A DNA stretch of 64,000 nt from Gammaproteobacteria bacterium (lineage in GTDB: Bacteria > Pseudomonadota > Gammaproteobacteria > Chromatiales > Chromatiaceae), in contig JAABSM010000005.1 of NCBI GenBank assembly GCA_011390365.1, positions 19,893 to 83,892 on the forward strand, in the 5' to 3' direction. The notes beneath the pieces were generated by a model. That model searched no databases. It was given only the letters and a program-made list of their open reading frames with translations, and had not been told where the DNA came from. The first letter of the stretch is position 1. Every line of letters begins with the position of its first letter. The translations under genes and the position numbers were made by a program. This document shows, in pieces, positions 34,289 through 41,935 of this stretch.

Positions 34289-36700
34289 ATGCCGCAAGCC
34301 GTACATTCGCTGTCACCATTCGATATCCAGAGGCTGCAAACTTCCAATCGTCTGCGCGAAGGGGCGATGGCGATCCTGTTCGCGGCGGGGGGATATCTGT
34401 TGCTCGCGCTGCTGACCTACTCCAGCAACGACCCGGGCTGGTCGTTCACCGGCGAGCGCGGACGTATCGAGAACCTGGGCGGCGCGGCCGGCGCCTGGTT
34501 CGCCGACGTCGCCTACAACCTGTTCGGCGCCTTCGCCATCCTCTTTCCCTTCATCGTCGCCATCAGCGGCTGGGTCGTCTTCAAGGAGGGCAGAGAGGAC
34601 AACAAGGTCCACTTTGGCGCGGTCGCACTACGCTGGGGGGGCTTTCTGGTCACCCTCTTCGCCGGCAGTTCGCTGCTGGCGATGAACCTGCCGGTCAACC
34701 AGTTCGCCCTCCCCTCCGGCCCCGGCGGCATCTTCGGCGACGTCCTCGGCAGCCATCTGGCGGAACTCTTCGGCGCCACCGGCGGCTCGTTGCTGGTGAT
34801 GGCACTGTTCATCGCCGGCACCACCCTCTTCACCGGCATCTCCTGGCTCTCCGTCATCGACTACACCGGCGCCCTCACCCTGGAGGGACTGCGTCGCCTG
34901 AGAGAGCTGGACTACCTCGCCACCCTGGAAGACCTGAAGCGCCGTTTTCAGCGTCCGGCCCATGCGCCTCGCCCCCGCCACCGTTTTACCCCGGCCCCGC
35001 CGGCGGCGCAACCGCAAACCAAGACGCCGCCGCCGAGCGCCCCGAAAACGGGAAAAAACGAAACCAAGCCCGCCCCGGGCAATGCCAAGACCGGCGAAGT
35101 CGGCAAGAAGCCGCGCATCGAACCCATGCTGGAGCGCCTCAAGCCCAGCAAGCGCGCCCAGTCGGAGCGCCAGCTCTCGCTGTTCGATCCCGACCCGACC
35201 CTGGAGCGGGCGTTGCCGCCGCTGGGCCTGCTCAACGAGGCGCGCAAGTCCGGCAAGGGCTTCTCGGAGGCGGCGCTGGAGGCGATGTCCCGCCAGGTCG
35301 AGATGAAGCTCAAGGACTTTCGCATCGAAGCGGAAGTGGTGGCTGTCCATCCCGGTCCGGTAGTGACCCTGTTCGAGCTGCAACTCGCCCCCGGCATCAA
35401 GGCCTCCCGGGTCACCTCCCTGTCCAAGGATCTGGCCCGCGCCCTCGCCACCATCAGCGTGCGCGTGGTCGAGGTGATCCCCGGCAAGTCGGTCATCGGC
35501 CTGGAGATCCCCAACGAACAGCGGGAGACGGTCTACCTCAGCGAGATCCTCCGCTCCGAGGCCTACGACAAGGCCAAGTCGCCCCTCACCCTGGCGCTGG
35601 GCAAGAACATCACCGGTCGCCCGAATGTCGCCGATCTGGCCAAGATGCCCCACGCCCTGATCGCCGGCACCACCGGCTCGGGTAAATCGGTGGCGATCAA
35701 CGCCATGATCCTGTCGATCCTCTACAAGGCCCCGCCAGAAGAGGTGCGCATGATCATGGTCGACCCCAAGATGCTGGAGCTGTCGGTCTACGAGGGCATC
35801 CCCCACCTGCTCACCCCGGTGGTCACCGACATGAAGGAGGCAGCCAACGCGCTGCGCTGGTGCGTCGCCGAGATGGATCGCCGCTACCAGTTGATGGCCA
35901 AACTGGGGGTGCGTAACATCACCGGTTATAACAAGAAGATCCGCGAGGCGGAGAAGGCCGGCACCCCCTACGCCGACCCCTTCTTCCGCCCCGACATGCT
36001 CTCCACCGAAGAGCAGATACCGCCGCCGCTGGAGGCCATGCCCTACATCGTGGTGGTGATCGACGAGCTGGCCGACATGATGATGGTGGTCGGCAAGAAG
36101 GTGGAAGAGCTGATCGCCCGCCTCGCCCAGAAGGCCCGCGCCGCCGGCATCCACCTGCTGCTGGCCACCCAGCGCCCGTCGGTGGACGTGATCACCGGCC
36201 TGATCAAGGCCAACATCCCGTCACGCATCGCCTTCCAGGTCTCGTCGCGCATCGACTCCCGCACCATCCTCGACCAGATGGGCGCGGAGCACCTGCTCGG
36301 CCACGGCGACATGCTCTACCTGCCCCCTGGCACCAGCATCCCGCAACGCCTCCACGGCGCGTTTGTCGACGACAACGAGGTCCACCAGGTGGTCGCCCAC
36401 CTCAAGCAGATGGGCGAGCCGGATTACATCGACGACATCCTCCAGGGCGGCGGTGATGACGCCTTCAGCCCCAGCGACGCCGGCGGCGATGTGGAAGATA
36501 CCGACCCCCTCTTCGACGAGGCGGTGCAGATCGTCACCGAGACCCGCAAGGCCTCCATCTCCGGCGTCCAGCGCCGTCTCAAGATCGGCTACAACCGCGC
36601 CGCGCGCATGATCGAAGAGATGGAACGCATCGGCGTGGTCAGCGCCGCCGAGACCAACGGCAACCGCCAGGTACTCGCGCCGCCGCCGGTGGAGGCTTGA
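34289..36700 (+). CDS. ftsK: DNA translocase FtsK
   Basis: 803 residues. Four N-terminal membrane helices (about 25-190) anchor it at the septum. A shorter Pro/Lys/Ala-rich linker (about 215-290) follows, then the RecA-like motor with Walker [12 protein letters not shown] and Walker [14 protein letters not shown], and a winged-helix gamma domain ([19 protein letters not shown]) that reads KOPS and activates XerCD at dif. It moves DNA to clear the division site. A 156-residue membrane protein is translationally coupled at its stop codon, and lolA, the usual neighbour, is 4.6 kb further on. Confidence 0.97.
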
Positions 36701-37170
36701 TGCAGTTCAAGATCAGCCACGCGGAGTTCGCCAAACGCAATCGCAACCTGGTCTGGGGGGCGATATTCAGCATCCTGCTGGCGGGGGTGACGATAGCCGC
36801 CAACCGGCTCTACCCCGCCTCCTTCAATGACCTCTTTCTCTGGTCGGTGATACTCTTCGTGGTACTGGCCAATTTGATCAATTTCGTCCGCCACCTGCGC
36901 TACCTGAAGCAGGCGCGCATCCACCGCCTGGAGGTCGCGGACGGTCGGCTGCGCTTTTTCACCGGCGATGAGATGGGTGAACTCGACCCGGAACGGATCG
37001 CCGGCCTTTCAGTCTATCGCCGCAAGGGCGAGATCAACCACTTGCAGATTCGGCTGAAGAACAACCGCGGAATCCGCCTGGAGGGCTACGAGGCGATGGA
37101 TGAACTGAAGAGCGCACTGGCCGACATGCTGCCATCCGCGCATGTGGACGATGCCGGGGCCAACCGCTAA
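36700..37170 (+). CDS. Hypothetical two-TM protein coupled to ftsK
   Basis: 156 residues. The ATG lies within the ftsK stop codon (TGATG), so translation coupling is likely. Two membrane helices (about 18-37 and 45-65) are followed by a roughly 90-residue soluble domain with beta strands (RLEVADGRLRFF, INHLQIRLKNNRGIRLEGYEAM) that could be a PH-like domain. No family recognised. It sits just before the accessory island and may be core rather than part of it. Confidence 0.7.
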   Translation: MQFKISHAEFAKRNRNLVWGAIFSILLAGVTIAANRLYPASFNDLFLWSVILFVVLANLINFVRHLRYLKQARIHRLEVADGRLRFFTGDEMGELDPERIAGLSVYRRKGEINHLQIRLKNNRGIRLEGYEAMDELKSALADMLPSAHVDDAGANR

Positions 37171-37190: not shown

Positions 37191-37904
37191 TTAGATTCGT
37201 GTTGAAAGCCACAGATGCCAAACCTCAATAGGGCCTGGGGCCAAGCGCGACATTGGCTCAAGGTAGGCAAAATCGCGCCGATGGGCGGTGTGCGCGAGGT
37301 CGCAGGAGACGCCGGACAAGGGCGCGGGCAGGGTCTCGGTGGCGTATTTCTCCCTGGGGCCAGGTTTCGCCAGATGCGGATGCAGGCAGCCGGCGATATT
37401 GCAACCATCGCGCACATAGCCAAGCATGAAGGCCTCACGCGACATCCAGGCATATTCGCCGCGAACAAACCTCACCAGACCCTGGCTGCAATATAGCCCC
37501 ACCGTCTTGTTGCGCGCGGCATCGATCAGCTTGCATTCGACGACCAGTGGAAAGTTGAAGCACCGATTAGTGAGGTGAATCGAAAGGTCCGGGCGCTTTT
37601 CCAGGCGGCTGCCGTCGAAGTTTACACTCTCCCGCCCCCGGCTCGCACCGCTGACAATGGTTTCCCACAAAGGATCTTCGTCGCGCAGCGTGTTAAGCCG
37701 CCCCTCCAGCAAGGCGCTGACTTCCGCCTCGTCGCCACTGCACACCACCTCTTGGCGCCGGTCAATCAGTTCCCGCCATACCTGCGTCAAAGTCTCCGCG
37801 ACTAAACGCAGGATAGATTCCGGTATTGGCGGCAACGGGAGCGAGATGCCGCGGGTCAGCTCGGCGACTTGTTCCGGACGAGGGTGAATCCGCGTTTTCG
37901 TCAT
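37191..37904 (-). CDS. PD-(D/E)XK nuclease-like protein, partner of the methyltransferase
   Basis: 237 residues, no close family named with confidence. The core strand pattern RPDLSIHLTNRC-FPLVVECK gives Asp106, Glu123 and Lys125 as the PD-(D/E)XK triad, with an upstream acidic helix (Glu60-Glu67). It begins inside the stop of the upstream methyltransferase (ATGA overlap), so the two are made together. The likely role is restriction or another DNA-cleaving step; the sequence does not show the recognition site. It ends 20 bp from the convergent membrane protein. Confidence 0.65.
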   Translation of the reverse strand: MTKTRIHPRPEQVAELTRGISLPLPPIPESILRLVAETLTQVWRELIDRRQEVVCSGDEAEVSALLEGRLNTLRDEDPLWETIVSGASRGRESVNFDGSRLEKRPDLSIHLTNRCFNFPLVVECKLIDAARNKTVGLYCSQGLVRFVRGEYAWMSREAFMLGYVRDGCNIAGCLHPHLAKPGPREKYATETLPAPLSGVSCDLAHTAHRRDFAYLEPMSRLAPGPIEVWHLWLSTRI

Positions 37905-40900
37905 GCGGCCTCTGTGCCGAACAATTTATCGACATGCTCCCAGATGATGCGGCGGGCAAGCAGGCGCGCGGCGCTCTTGCTCCAGTAGCGCGCCTGATCG
38001 AGACGGGCAATCCACAGGGTGTTGTTATCCGGCGCCGGGAACAACACCTCGCTACTGGCCAGACGGTCCGCCACGCGCAGCACCTCGGGCCAGTCATCGC
38101 ATGATGCCGACATTTTTTCATTTCCGGTCTCGATGCGCAGCAGCCGCCAAGGGGTCTCGCCTTTCAGCGTGGGTAACGACACCTTTAACGGCTTGCCGTG
38201 ACGCTTGGCCCAGGGGGCGAGTTCGGCTTCGAGGGCGATGCGGAAGCCCTCGCGGTTATCGGCATCCGTGGGGGCCTGGGCGGCCCGCCGGTTGGCGGCA
38301 TATGGGAGCTCGAAACGCAAGGTGTCGTCGATGACCTCAAGGTCCCGTGGGCGTAGACCATAGAGACCGGCGACCCAGGCATCTACTGCCGCCCAGGCGG
38401 CCTCGTCGCCGCGCTGGGCGACGGCATCGAATAGCGGAATGATCCGGTCGCGGGCTGCGGCGGGCAGCTTTTCAAAATCGGGCACCGCGATCGAATCGAT
38501 AATGAATTTCTCGACGACCTCGCGCTCGAAGCCGAATTTGCCGCTTGTCACAAGGGCGTGCCAGAATGCCGGCCTGCTACCGATCACCAGCGCCAAATAG
38601 CGCACCAGCCTCATGCCATCATAGTGCTCGCAGGCGCTATAACCGTAATAGGTTTCGTTGAAGACAACATTACTATCCGCGACGCTTGCGTGGATTCGCC
38701 CCGAATCAGCCAAAGGCGATTGGTGGACAATCAACAGAGGGCCTCGGAAAATCTCTCTGGGCCTACCTCGATGAACGCGCTCGTTGGTAAATTCATCTAA
38801 CTGTTTCGTATCAATCCACCTATCCTTGGCAATCTCGCCGTTGAGTTCAGGCAAGCCGTGCAGGTATTCCGCAGGGACGCCTGGCAAACCATCGCCACTT
38901 TTTCTTATTCGGCTACTGGCACGGAGCCTTTGATAACCATTACCCGCGAAATTCAAGGCGCGCCCCCGTCTACCAAAGCGCCGCGCCCAGTAACCTGACA
39001 AGGTATCGATTGCACGCCCTGCCATACGGTCGAACACCTCAAGGCTCAGCGGGCCGCCGCGAAACAGGATCTTGAGGATCTCTGGCCGCTGCGTGACCTG
39101 CCCGACCGCAACGGTTTCCGCGTTGCCCGCGTCCAACCGAAGAATCCCACTATTGTTGAGGCCATCTTCAAGACGAGGGCTGACGAACAAAAATCCTGCC
39201 CCTGGCGGGGGGGGTTGATTACGGGCATAGAGAAGACAAAAAGGGGCGGCAATCTCTGGCCAGACCCTGGTTTTACGCAGGTCCGCACCGTTCACTACGC
39301 CGGTCACGTCCAGCGCATTGAACAGTGCCGCGCGCGCCTCCTCCATCCCCTCGCCATGCTGAAACAGCAACCGTCCGTGCAGAACGAAGGCAATCTGCCC
39401 GCCCGAACGCGCCCACTCCATGGCCCGCCAAACGAAGGGCAGATCCATCACTTGATTGGGCAGCAATGGGCGCGGGCCATTCTCGGGCAACCGCTGGGCC
39501 GCGATGGACTGCACCCGCGCCACGACCCGCGGCCAGTCCGACAGCCTGGTCGAGCTCGACCAAGGGGGGTTGCCAACAATCAAGTCGTACCTACCCCTGT
39601 GCTCCTCCCCTACATCAGGGCCAAGGCTCCCCAGCCCCTGCTCATCCCCCACCTTGAACAGAACACGATCACGCAACTCATCGAAACGAAGCCTCTGCAG
39701 CGGCTCGGGTTTAGGATCGAGTTCGATCGATAGCAGATACAAGCCGAGCGCGGCGAAGCGCAGACCGGATTCGTTGATGTCGAAACCGGCGATCTGGTTG
39801 CGGAGGATGGTTCGGAGTGTCCGGGTATCCGGCCGCTTTTCGTCATGTCGCCAACGCGCCGCCACCAAATGTCGAAAGGCCGTGAGGAGAAACACGCCCG
39901 CCCCCGCGGCGGGATCCAGGACACGGGCCTCGTGTGCGCGCCCTTCGCGACGCAGGGCGTGAAAGGCGCCCCGTACCAAAAGGTCGGCAATCGGTCGCGG
40001 CGTGTAGTAGCCGCCTTCTCGCTGCTGCTTGTCCGGTGTGTGGCGACGCTGGTAGTGTTCATAGGCTTGACTGAGGACGCCCACCGGGATGTGGGCAAAA
40101 TCCAGGTGCGCCCAGTCTTCTTCCCACTCGAGATAACGCTGGCCGCCCGGGGTGCGGCGCATGATGTCGCCAAGCACCTTGAAGGCCCGTTCCGGCAGCG
40201 AGGCAAACAGGCCTTTTGAGTAGGGCAACAGGTCGCCGTTGAAGGTGTCGTCCAGCCAGGCGCAGGTGTTTTCCGCTTTTGCCGGGTCATCGAACAGATG
40301 ATCCGCACTCTGACCGGCAAGCAGGTCCTCTGGAAGCAGGTCGCGATCCGCCAGGAAGCGGGTGAACAGGGCGCGTCCGACCAAGGAGATTGCGTCGGGG
40401 TCGGAAAGATCGGCCTCATGAATGAGCACTTCGATCGCCTCGCCGAGAAGCTTGAGTACCACATCGGCAATCCAGCGCCCCTTGGCGGCCAGACCCGGGC
40501 GATGGTTGGCGAGATGGGAAAAGGTGGCCTGCCGCGCTACGGACGAGGCAAGGGTCAGGCGGCTTTGGGCGGGTGTCGCCGCGTCCAGCGCGATGCGGTG
40601 CAGGGTCAGTTGACCGGGGCGAACAACACCGAGATAAGGCGCATCGCCGCGCAAGGCGAGTCGGCGGCGAATGGCTTGCAGGTGCTGATCATTCGCCAGG
40701 CTCGCACCATCGACCAGAAATACCAGCGGAGCATCCTGCCATTCATACACCCCCATCAGAGGCGTAAGCTCGGATTGCTCGGTTTGGCGAGAACCGACCA
40801 AGGTTGCATAGGGCAGCAATCCAGGCTCGTCATCCTCGAATCTGGACAGGCTATCCAGGTCGGCACCATATTCAATGAGGGTTTGGTCGAAAGGGTTCAT
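37901..40900 (-). CDS. Large N6-adenine DNA methyltransferase (restriction-modification type)
   Basis: 999 residues. The central methylase core shows GGYYTPRPIADLL (about 295-308), SAM-binding motif I LDPAAGAGVF (about 328-337), and catalytic NPPW (about 443-446) in YDLIVGNPPWSS, as in gamma-class N6-adenine methylases (type I HsdM, type IIG). About 290 residues precede the core and about 520 follow, the latter probably containing target recognition (WARRFGRRGRALNFAGNGYQ ... NEELYYGYSACEHYDGMRL-like region). No helicase motor is visible. The start at 40900 lacks a clear ribosome site. Parts at about 38650-38960 look less GC-rich than the neighbours, suggesting transfer. Confidence 0.8.
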   Translation of the reverse strand: MNPFDQTLIEYGADLDSLSRFEDDEPGLLPYATLVGSRQTEQSELTPLMGVYEWQDAPLVFLVDGASLANDQHLQAIRRRLALRGDAPYLGVVRPGQLTLHRIALDAATPAQSRLTLASSVARQATFSHLANHRPGLAAKGRWIADVVLKLLGEAIEVLIHEADLSDPDAISLVGRALFTRFLADRDLLPEDLLAGQSADHLFDDPAKAENTCAWLDDTFNGDLLPYSKGLFASLPERAFKVLGDIMRRTPGGQRYLEWEEDWAHLDFAHIPVGVLSQAYEHYQRRHTPDKQQREGGYYTPRPIADLLVRGAFHALRREGRAHEARVLDPAAGAGVFLLTAFRHLVAARWRHDEKRPDTRTLRTILRNQIAGFDINESGLRFAALGLYLLSIELDPKPEPLQRLRFDELRDRVLFKVGDEQGLGSLGPDVGEEHRGRYDLIVGNPPWSSSTRLSDWPRVVARVQSIAAQRLPENGPRPLLPNQVMDLPFVWRAMEWARSGGQIAFVLHGRLLFQHGEGMEEARAALFNALDVTGVVNGADLRKTRVWPEIAAPFCLLYARNQPPPPGAGFLFVSPRLEDGLNNSGILRLDAGNAETVAVGQVTQRPEILKILFRGGPLSLEVFDRMAGRAIDTLSGYWARRFGRRGRALNFAGNGYQRLRASSRIRKSGDGLPGVPAEYLHGLPELNGEIAKDRWIDTKQLDEFTNERVHRGRPREIFRGPLLIVHQSPLADSGRIHASVADSNVVFNETYYGYSACEHYDGMRLVRYLALVIGSRPAFWHALVTSGKFGFEREVVEKFIIDSIAVPDFEKLPAAARDRIIPLFDAVAQRGDEAAWAAVDAWVAGLYGLRPRDLEVIDDTLRFELPYAANRRAAQAPTDADNREGFRIALEAELAPWAKRHGKPLKVSLPTLKGETPWRLLRIETGNEKMSASCDDWPEVLRVADRLASSEVLFPAPDNNTLWIARLDQARYWSKSAARLLARRIIWEHVDKLFGTEAA

Positions 40901-41084
40901 AAGGTGTTTTGTGACACATGCGCCTAATCGCGTCAAGCCCCTTATCCACATTAAAGCCAATAGTGGCAAATCATGGGCATGACCTCAAATTCTCATATGG
41001 ACACTCTCGCCCTTCCCTGCCTCATTCCAGCTGCCTCGCTTCCGCTTCAAAAGTTAATGAAAATGCGCCAAACCCGATATCCAA

Positions 41085-41165
41085 CATGCAACACCGCCTC
41101 AAGATCGGCTACAATCGCCCCACCCATGCCCTGATGGAGCGCACCCGCGGCATCCGCGCCCCATC
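41085..41165 (+). pseudogene. Short ftsK 3'-end-like scar before lolA
   Basis: The nucleotides CTCAAGATCGGCTACAA (41098) and the translation [16 protein letters not shown] match the FtsK gamma-domain hallmark [18 protein letters not shown] at 36577-36630. In related genomes ftsK and lolA are neighbours, so this position fits the original ftsK end. A short match; convergence cannot be excluded. Confidence 0.45.
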
Positions 41166-41296
41166 GCTCGACCAGAAAAACCCGGGAGCGCACTACCTTG
41201 CAGTTCACCCTTCGCCCCTTCGGGCAAACCCCAGCAACAACAAGCTCACCCCCATCTGGCGGCGAGTTCGCGAGTCCACGAGGGTCTCGACAAGCC

Positions 41297-41935
41297 ATGC
41301 CCCAGCCGCGGCGCTGGTTGCCGCTTTTGCTGCTGCTCTGCGCTTGGCTATTCACGCCCCTGGCCCTTGCCCAGCAAACCAGCGGCATTGAACAACTGCG
41401 GACCTTCCTCGATGACCTTCGCACCCTGCGCGCCGATTTCCAGCAGGTGACCTATGTCCAGAATGACGATGCGGGACAGACCGCGGCGGGGGTCTTCTAC
41501 CTGGAACGGCCGGATCACTTCCGCTGGAACTACACCCACCCGGGGCAGCAGGAGATCGTCGCTGACGGGCTTTCGGTGTGGTACTACGAACCGGATCTGG
41601 AGCAGGTGAGCGTGCAGTTTCAGGCGCTGGCGCTGAAGGGCACGCCGGCGCGACTGCTGACCAGCGAGGCCCCCATCGACGAATACTTCGAACTGGAAGA
41701 AGGCGGCGAGCGGGAGGGGCTGGCGTGGGTGGAGCTGCATTCCAAGGAGGAGGAGCCCCGTTTTCAGAAGATCGAACTGGGTTTGGAAGAGAACCTTCTC
41801 GCGGCAATGCGGCTGGTGGACAACTTCGGCCAGACCATCTGGTTTCTGTTCGAGAACCTGGCGAAGAATCCCGACCTGGACGGCGGGCTGTTCCGTTTCG
41901 ATCCTCCGCCGGGGTACGACATCCTGGAACGATAA
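41297..41935 (+). CDS. lolA: Outer-membrane lipoprotein chaperone LolA
   Basis: 212 residues. Signal peptide 1-24 (LLLLLCAWLFTPLALA). The mature part shows the LolA pattern LRTLRADFQQVTY, GVFYLERPDHFRWNYTHPGQQEIVADG-WYYEPDLEQV, and the end FENLAKNPDLDGGLFRFDPPPG. It carries lipoproteins from LolCDE across the periplasm to LolB. LolC/E and LolD are encoded at 61.6-63.6 kb in this window. Start chosen at 41297 to give a proper signal peptide. Confidence 0.95.
   Translation: MPQPRRWLPLLLLLCAWLFTPLALAQQTSGIEQLRTFLDDLRTLRADFQQVTYVQNDDAGQTAAGVFYLERPDHFRWNYTHPGQQEIVADGLSVWYYEPDLEQVSVQFQALALKGTPARLLTSEAPIDEYFELEEGGEREGLAWVELHSKEEEPRFQKIELGLEENLLAAMRLVDNFGQTIWFLFENLAKNPDLDGGLFRFDPPPGYDILER

What the first reader, a model, noticed from the sequence alone, without database searches (positions are those of the whole stretch)
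37191..40900. Compact methyltransferase plus PD-(D/E)XK nuclease pair between ftsK and lolA
A 999-residue N6-adenine methylase (motif I DPAAGAG, NPPW) overlaps by ATGA a 237-residue protein with an Asp-Glu-Lys PD-(D/E)XK pattern. There is no helicase, specificity subunit or other known defence gene. A single large methylase with a tiny coupled nuclease is not a textbook type I, IIG, BREX or DISARM layout. It could be an unusual type II restriction system, with recognition built into the methylase tail, or a defence module not yet named. The position at the ftsK-lolA junction and weaker GC in part of the methylase suggest lateral transfer.
Basis: partly seen in the sequence, partly recalled or inferred. 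Interest (0 to 1): 0.7.

Follow-up and report, generated by a model that had tools for sequence, protein, structure and literature searches.

The report
Unnamed methylase-plus-nuclease restriction operon
Two overlapping genes, a large DNA-marking enzyme and a small presumed DNA-cutting enzyme that nearly always follows it, look like a widespread but apparently unnamed bacterial restriction system, and in some bacteria its operon also carries a DNA-damage (SOS-type) repressor.

Summary
In detail: a 999-aa gamma-class adenine methylase (37901-40900, minus) overlaps by ATGA a 237-aa protein with a PD-(D/E)XK pattern (37191-37904). The pair is conserved: 77 of 83 methylase loci have the nuclease directly 3', and in a 398-genome phylum sample all 7 methylase-family genomes, the window's own included, have it. 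E59, D106, E123 and K125 are all intact in 88 of 91 nucleases. The nuclease matches no Pfam, NCBIfam or PADLOC model convincingly. A swapped recognition region lies near methylase residues 611-720; nuclease divergence does not follow it but follows the methylase termini, suggesting that the methylase aims the nuclease. A regulator precedes the methylase in 65 of 94 loci: XRE, MerR-like, or LexA-type, the last with E. coli-like SOS boxes in 11 deltaproteobacterial loci of varying strength. The window copy has none and interrupts an ftsK-lolA junction that is uninterrupted in 25 of 29 other family loci. Best reading: a split, Type IIG-like restriction-modification system.

The parts
37901..40900 (-). 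N6-adenine DNA methylase, gamma class by motif order (X, I, IV, then recognition region), 999 aa
   Evidence: Pfam N6_Mtase 1e-17; YYTP, LDP, NPPW invariant or nearly so in A7; overlaps the nuclease start by 4 bp
37191..37904 (-). PD-(D/E)XK nuclease-like subunit, 237 aa
   Evidence: E59, P105-D106, E123, K125 invariant in A6; no convincing Pfam, PADLOC or NCBIfam match for any of 76 members
37530..37589 (-). predicted active site of the nuclease, D106 to K125
   Evidence: D106 91 of 91, E123 89 of 91, K125 89 of 91; the copies that lack a residue are L009, L036 and L044, all cut or disrupted
38741..39070 (-). putative target-recognition region, methylase residues 611-720
   Evidence: L058 against L052: windows of 0.13-0.38 identity at 616-691, against mostly 0.8-0.96 over 271-511; a weaker dip follows at about 766-856
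37916..38260 (-). methylase C-terminal region (residues 881-995), candidate docking site for the nuclease
   Evidence: strongest residual covariation with the nuclease, partial r 0.63, bootstrap 0.46-0.74; gene adjacency is a caveat
40451..40831 (-). methylase N-terminal domain (residues 24-150), where Type IIG enzymes carry their nuclease domain; no ExK motif seen here
   Evidence: alignments A3 and A7; no Pfam match in 10 members; profile comparison with HSDR_N_2 members not significant
36697..37170 (+). 157-aa protein, membrane-like by eye, start overlapping the ftsK stop; part of the inserted stretch
   Evidence: not seen between ftsK and lolA in other family loci; found on other contigs in 5 of 57 other family genomes
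41066..41160 (+). probable decayed copy of the ftsK 3' end beside lolA, left by the insertion
   Evidence: D1 78% over 45 nt; score 67 against window ftsK, highest of 266 alignments of other window stretches 52; only 53 against the same-genus ftsK end
34289..36700 (+). ftsK, left neighbour
   Evidence: 54 of 58 family genomes searched have a match, own included
41198..41935 (+). lolA, right neighbour (true start probably near 41300, by eye from the signal peptide)
   Evidence: homologue within 0.4 kb of the ftsK end in 25 of 29 other family loci

Best explanation
This is a two-subunit restriction-modification system, best described as a split Type IIG-like enzyme. The large subunit recognises a DNA sequence through its C-terminal recognition region and marks it with N6-methyladenine. 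The small PD-(D/E)XK subunit has little room for sequence recognition of its own; it docks on the large subunit and cuts DNA in which that sequence is unmodified. Shown by sequence: the methylase family, the intact PD-(D/E)XK pattern, near-obligate coupling, co-inheritance, a swapped recognition block, and operonic regulators with predicted operators. Inferred: the complex, the aiming of the cut, and anti-phage function. In many relatives the operon begins with a dedicated regulator (XRE, MerR-like or LexA type); the LexA form predicts induction by DNA damage. The window copy has lost or never had this regulator.
For: Pair in 77 of 83 loci; taking the start codon nearest to the stop, the nuclease start overlaps the methylase stop by 4 bp in 44, by 1 bp in 17, and lies 4-7 positions after it in 16 of 77. 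In the phylum sample 7 of 7 methylase-family genomes, own included. All four catalytic residues in 88 of 91. Identity matrices of methylase and nuclease correlate at r 0.95 over 70 loci, 0 of 999 permutations reaching it, and 0.92 and 0.95 within the two clades. Recognition block near 611-720. After removing the effect of the core, nuclease divergence tracks the methylase CTD (0.63), 801-880 (0.53) and the NTD (0.45) but not the recognition block (0.11, bootstrap -0.10 to 0.37); five of the six close pairs with a strongly diverged block have nuclease identity 0.60-0.69, near the mean of 0.62. One phage-like contig with DnaB and terminase genes carries an intact family methylase and no nuclease, as self-protection would predict. 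XRE-type regulators with a palindrome upstream resemble the controller proteins of Type II systems (PMC3874152, passages).
Against: The fold of the nuclease rests on motif and spacing; comparison with HSDR_N_2 members aligned the ECK strand but was not significant. CTD-nuclease covariation could partly reflect physical linkage, since the two are neighbours in DNA; pairs of sequences are not independent. L058/L052, the pair with the most diverged recognition block, also has a low nuclease identity (0.50 against 0.62, sd 0.08). Three loci (L046, L050, L096) have a methylase broken by frameshifts with an intact nuclease ORF, which a toxic nuclease would not allow unless these are assembly errors. 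The nuclease-less phage contig is a single case; the two other viral contigs carry the pair.
Confidence: 0.62

Rival explanations
1. Ordinary Type II pair: an independent methylase and an independent small restriction enzyme that each read the same site.
For: Many Type II enzymes are PD-(D/E)XK proteins of this size (recalled). XRE regulators with operator palindromes resemble C-protein systems. The L058/L052 nucleases are somewhat more diverged than expected.
Against: One nuclease family follows one methylase family with r 0.95, whereas Type II endonucleases are usually unrelated between related methylases (recalled). Over 483 close pairs nuclease divergence does not follow the recognition block.
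Confidence: 0.22
2. Methylation-triggered or abortive module: the nuclease cuts methylated DNA or kills the host when methylation is disturbed, rather than restricting unmodified DNA.
For: LexA-type regulators in 17 of 97 loci would fit a module tied to DNA damage; the nuclease is small and may lack specificity.
Against: A phage-like contig carries the methylase alone, which would be harmful to it if methylation triggered cutting. One contig only, so weak.
Confidence: 0.1
3. A reduced relative of BREX, MADS or another multi-gene methylase-based defence that needs further genes elsewhere.
For: The methylase domain's best NCBIfam matches are MAD2 and BREX PglX, though far below cut-off (36.8 of 720 bits; 33.1 of 900).
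Against: No further recurrent partner was seen by eye in the 12 plasmid neighbourhoods read; I made no systematic neighbour count and did not search the window's genome for BREX or MADS partners.
Confidence: 0.05

Closest known systems
Type IIG restriction-modification enzymes (Eco57I, BcgI, MmeI types)
   Same: gamma-class adenine methylase with C-terminal recognition region and PD-(D/E)XK cleavage; PADLOC's best match for the methylase is REase_MTase_IIG, 2.5e-19, best stretch 171-473
   Different: [quoted passage not shown] Here the N-terminal domain shows no ExK and the nuclease is a separate downstream gene.
Type II systems with controller (C) proteins
   Same: XRE-type regulator first in the operon with palindromes upstream; C proteins as in PMC3874152 (passages)
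   Different: Methylase and nuclease genes overlap or abut, so a C-type delay of the nuclease alone is unlikely (inference); in other loci the regulator is MerR-like or LexA-type, and the window has none.
Type I systems (HsdM, HsdR, HsdS)
   Same: HsdM-like methylase domain; among 18 PDB profile matches are the EcoR124II and EcoKI M subunits, though the best (3e-13) are other adenine methylases
   Different: No S subunit or helicase gene seen beside the pair.
BREX / MADS
   Same: large methylase with generic similarity to PglX and MAD2
   Different: Scores far below cut-offs; no partner genes seen beside the pair.
HVO_A0006 of Haloferax volcanii
   Same: separate PD-(D/E)XK protein linked to adenine methylation (PMC4389544, passages)
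   Different: It is a lone fragment of a Type IIG N-terminus between transposition genes, not a methylase-coupled operon gene.

Membership tests
Type IIG restriction-modification enzyme | gamma-class methylase with C-terminal recognition region | tested here: met
   motif order in A7 and variable block near 611-720; specificity itself not measured
Type IIG restriction-modification enzyme | nuclease domain at the N-terminus of the same polypeptide | tested here: not met
   no ExK seen in the N-terminal domain, no Pfam match in 10 members, HSDR_N_2 comparison not significant; nuclease is a separate gene
Type IIG restriction-modification enzyme | cleavage at a fixed distance from the site, stimulated by SAM | not testable with these tools
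   needs biochemistry
Type II system with C protein | XRE controller gene in the operon with its own operator | tested here: inconclusive
   XRE model hit in 25 of 97 loci, palindrome in 17 of 17 scored (consensus taken from the same loci); absent from the window
Type I system | S subunit and HsdR helicase | tested here: not met
   none among the ORFs of 34-44 kb, read by eye, nor annotated in the plasmid operons
BREX | PglX above model cut-off | tested here: not met
   33.1 of 900 bits for the best PglX model
BREX | PglZ and BrxC partners in the genome | not tested
   only the ORFs of 34-44 kb were read by eye
MADS | MAD2 above model cut-off | tested here: not met
   36.8 of 720 bits
PD-(D/E)XK nuclease | conserved PD...(D/E)xK with upstream Glu | tested here: met
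   E59, P105-D106, E123, K125 invariant in 76 sequences
[quoted passage not shown]
   structure prediction switched off

The most novel reading that the evidence does not exclude
A previously unnamed subtype of restriction-modification in which a gamma-class methylase aims a separate PD-(D/E)XK subunit with no sequence reading of its own, and whose operon has repeatedly exchanged its repressor, including for a self-cleaving LexA paralogue with SOS boxes, making restriction and modification inducible by DNA damage.
Probability: 0.45. Interest if true: 0.72.

Novelty: new variant of a known kind. Interest (0 to 1): 0.57.

Why it matters
By record titles the pair occurs in Proteobacteria, Verrucomicrobia, Planctomycetes, Acidobacteria and Gemmatimonadetes, many of them metagenome assemblies, and on at least 12 plasmids, where its nuclease is annotated 'hypothetical protein'. 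A nuclease that takes its address from a separate methylase would be a modular tool whose specificity could be changed in one subunit. The LexA-type operons allow a direct test of whether restriction is tied to the SOS response, the opposite of the restriction alleviation known in E. coli (recalled).

Tried and rejected
Degenerate N-terminal nuclease in the methylase: the N-terminal domain lies where Type IIG enzymes keep their nuclease and looks similar by eye, but profile comparison with HSDR_N_2 members gave 0.4% probability and with the small nuclease 0.1%, so it is not claimed. Relatives of the nuclease among solved structures: nothing convincing. Lost XRE in the window: no remnant upstream, best match in the genome E 0.1. 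INPHARED phages: no match for the nuclease or for two family methylases. A common viral orphan methylase: the five viral scans that ran gave three distinct contigs, one without the nuclease. LexA as the host's only LexA: by my reading of positions 6 of 8 genomes hold another LexA_DNA_bind protein besides the operonic one, 2 (G802, G806) do not.

Rows dropped and limits: one search kept the best 80 of 108 relatives. Ten methylases with frameshifts or partial length were left out of A7, two truncated nucleases out of A6. Six of 83 loci lack a detected nuclease: three end at the contig edge (L043, L055, L065), two are broken (L048, L049), one is the phage-like contig L099. prefers a start codon that overlaps the stop when there is one. 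Plasmid neighbourhoods were read for 12 loci, chosen from 5 nuclease and 522 methylase records. ftsK loci were held for 30 of 54 genomes with a match. Of 17 LexA-type loci, 13 were scored for SOS boxes with shuffles and 2 more without (L028 11, L056 12 of 20); L083 and L096, with partial LexA hits, were not scored. At most 1 of 100 shuffles reached the score in 7 of 13; L084 and L097 are weak (10 and 7 of 100), L091 has no box (58 of 100). The XRE palindrome was scored in 17 of 25 XRE loci, with a consensus read from those same loci. Regulator models were built from seeds of the same loci, and the window is not among the 97.
Full report
Observation. The methylase is 999 aa from ATG 40900 (or 1022 aa from TTG 40969) and overlaps the 237-aa protein by ATGA at 37901-37904. 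The methylase matches Pfam N6_Mtase (1e-17) and Eco57I (1.5e-7). The small protein matches nothing convincingly in Pfam, NCBIfam or PADLOC, alone or as 76 family members (the best of these scattered hits is 0.0045). The nuclease is single copy in its genome; the methylase has two further, weak matches of the generic domain.

Co-occurrence. The nuclease protein found five plasmids. Four were read; each has an 'N-6 DNA methylase' just upstream (in two pieces in B. glumae), and the nuclease is annotated hypothetical. Eight further plasmid loci, mostly chosen from the methylase search, carry a nuclease-family ORF downstream (profile hits). One scan of the species-genome collection with a four-sequence methylase alignment confirmed 108 relatives and kept 80 loci; one viral scan gave 3. 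A nuclease profile finds the nuclease directly 3' of the methylase in 77 of these 83. The six others are three contig ends, two broken loci and one phage-like contig. In all 77 the nearest nuclease start overlaps the methylase stop (44 by 4 bp, 17 by 1 bp) or lies 4-7 positions after it (16). Because the scan was made with the methylase, this is a fair test from that side. In a sample of 398 genomes of the window's phylum (not named by the tool) the nuclease profile hit 6 genomes and the methylase profile 7, the window's own included; all 7 are pairs, the seventh nuclease being found on reading the locus. An earlier single-protein search of 369 genomes of the class gave one further genome, also a pair. 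The system is therefore rare (about 1.5% of that phylum sample) but, as far as seen, nearly always paired.

Active site. D106, E123 and K125 are invariant in 14 homologues, the 13 others 17-50% identical to the window, and, with E59 and P105, in 76. Over 91 sequences 88 hold all four of E59, D106, E123 and K125; the exceptions, L009, L036 and L044, are cut or disrupted copies. Y138, G142, F146, Y151, W153, H208, R210, H230 and W232 are further invariant positions.

How recognition and cutting are divided. Between L058 and L052 identity is mostly 0.8-0.96 over residues 271-511, drops to 0.13-0.38 at about 616-691, rises to 0.6 near 721-736, dips again to about 0.4 to 856 and ends at 0.6-0.8; five other pairs show the first drop more or less strongly. 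I read this as an exchanged recognition region. Methylase and nuclease identity matrices correlate at 0.95 over 70 loci (0 of 999 permutations). After removing the effect of the core, over 483 close pairs, nuclease divergence follows the methylase CTD (0.63), 801-880 (0.53), NTD (0.45), 721-800 (0.42) and the helical part (0.40), but not the recognition block (0.11); the bootstrap range of the CTD minus recognition-block difference is 0.14 to 0.75. I read this as docking on the methylase without sequence reading by the nuclease. Caveats: pairs are not independent, the CTD is next to the nuclease in DNA, and the most diverged pair (L058/L052) also has a low nuclease identity of 0.50.

Regulators. 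Of 97 loci examined (the window not among them), 3 end too close upstream, 29 show no regulator of the types modelled and 65 do: 25 XRE, 23 MerR-like (five sub-models) and 17 LexA-type, two of these partial. Labels: in the three LexA examples scanned Pfam finds Peptidase_S24 in all, and LexA_DNA_bind over its cut-off in two; MerR_1 is found in one of the four MerR-like examples; the one XRE example scanned has no Pfam hit, but two plasmid records call it XRE and two call the MerR-like one MerR. In 13 aligned LexA proteins the Ala-Gly bond, the Ser of GDSM and the Lys are invariant (their role in self-cleavage is recalled). The 11 deltaproteobacterial LexA operons scored have a TACTGTATATTATAACAGTA-like box upstream of the LexA gene, 13-17 of 20 matches to the E. 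coli box; at most 1 of 100 shuffles reaches this in 7 of the 13 LexA loci scored, and L084 and L097 are weak. In 11 MerR and 17 XRE loci the median is 10 and none passes that mark. The XRE operons have a CACATAAAATTATGTG-like palindrome in 17 of 17 scored, often two in tandem by eye. The same methylase-nuclease pair thus stands under unrelated regulators in different lineages; L028, of the window's clade, also has a LexA-type gene, though without a clear SOS box.

The window copy. It has no regulator. lolA lies within 0.4 kb of the ftsK end in 25 of 29 other family loci held, including the same-genus one; in the other four lolA was not seen. So about 36.7-41.1 kb is an insertion, carrying also a 157-aa gene that occurs on other contigs in 5 of 57 other family genomes. 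A probable decayed copy of the ftsK 3' end lies at 41066-41160 beside lolA (score 67, highest of 266 other alignments 52, but only 53 against the same-genus ftsK), suggesting that the element entered at the ftsK end; no integrase was seen among the ORFs of the insert.

A natural test. Viral contig L099 has a DnaB-like helicase, a terminase and an intact family methylase, 0.85 identical in the core to a Verrucomicrobia copy (L052), but no nuclease. A phage that keeps only the methylase is what a restriction system would select. It is one case; the other two viral contigs carry the pair.

Comparison with what is known. [quoted passage not shown] here it is a separate gene. A 2026 BREX survey (PMC12839542, passages) and a 2026 defence-prediction paper (PMC13092281, passages and legends) did not show this pair in the passages seen. 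A review of R-M regulation (PMC3874152, passages) speaks of C proteins and, for toxin-antitoxin genes, of LexA; no LexA-controlled R-M operon appears in the passages seen. HVO_A0006 (PMC4389544, passages) is a lone Type IIG nuclease fragment, a partial parallel. I found no print description in the searches; subscription papers and REBASE were not searchable, so the family may be listed there.

Verdict. A real, widespread, apparently unnamed restriction-modification variant; interest lies in the split architecture and in the exchangeable regulators, above all the LexA/SOS form. Function is inferred.

Noticed in passing
L065, L068, L070, L072, L073, L076, L082, L084, L085, L089, L097, upstream of the LexA gene: E. 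coli-type SOS boxes in deltaproteobacterial operons, often with a second half-site or box just downstream (by eye).
   Followed up: partly
window 41066-41160: Probable decayed duplicate of the ftsK 3' end beside lolA, suggesting an element that integrates at the ftsK end; no integrase seen in the insert.
   Followed up: partly
window 36697-37170: 157-aa membrane-like protein overlapping the ftsK stop, no Pfam match over cut-off, scattered in other genomes of the family.
   Followed up: partly
L099 5711-8785: Phage-like contig with a family methylase but no nuclease.
   Followed up: yes
L052, L058, L077, L079, L099, L100 upstream of the methylase: Shared GTGCAAA stretch upstream of several regulator-less operons (by eye), possibly an operator for an unlinked regulator.
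   Followed up: no
L048 7033-10698: Broken family locus: the nuclease stops after its start and is followed by an OLD-like ATPase gene and a UvrD-like helicase gene, which look like a Gabija pair (by eye, name recalled).
   Followed up: no
L007 11733-17392: Plasmid pair next to genes annotated nucleotidyltransferase, HNH endonuclease, SIR2 and DarT-like, a possible defence island.
   Followed up: no
L046, L050, L096: MAG loci with a frameshifted methylase but an open nuclease frame; assembly error or real decay not decided.
   Followed up: partly
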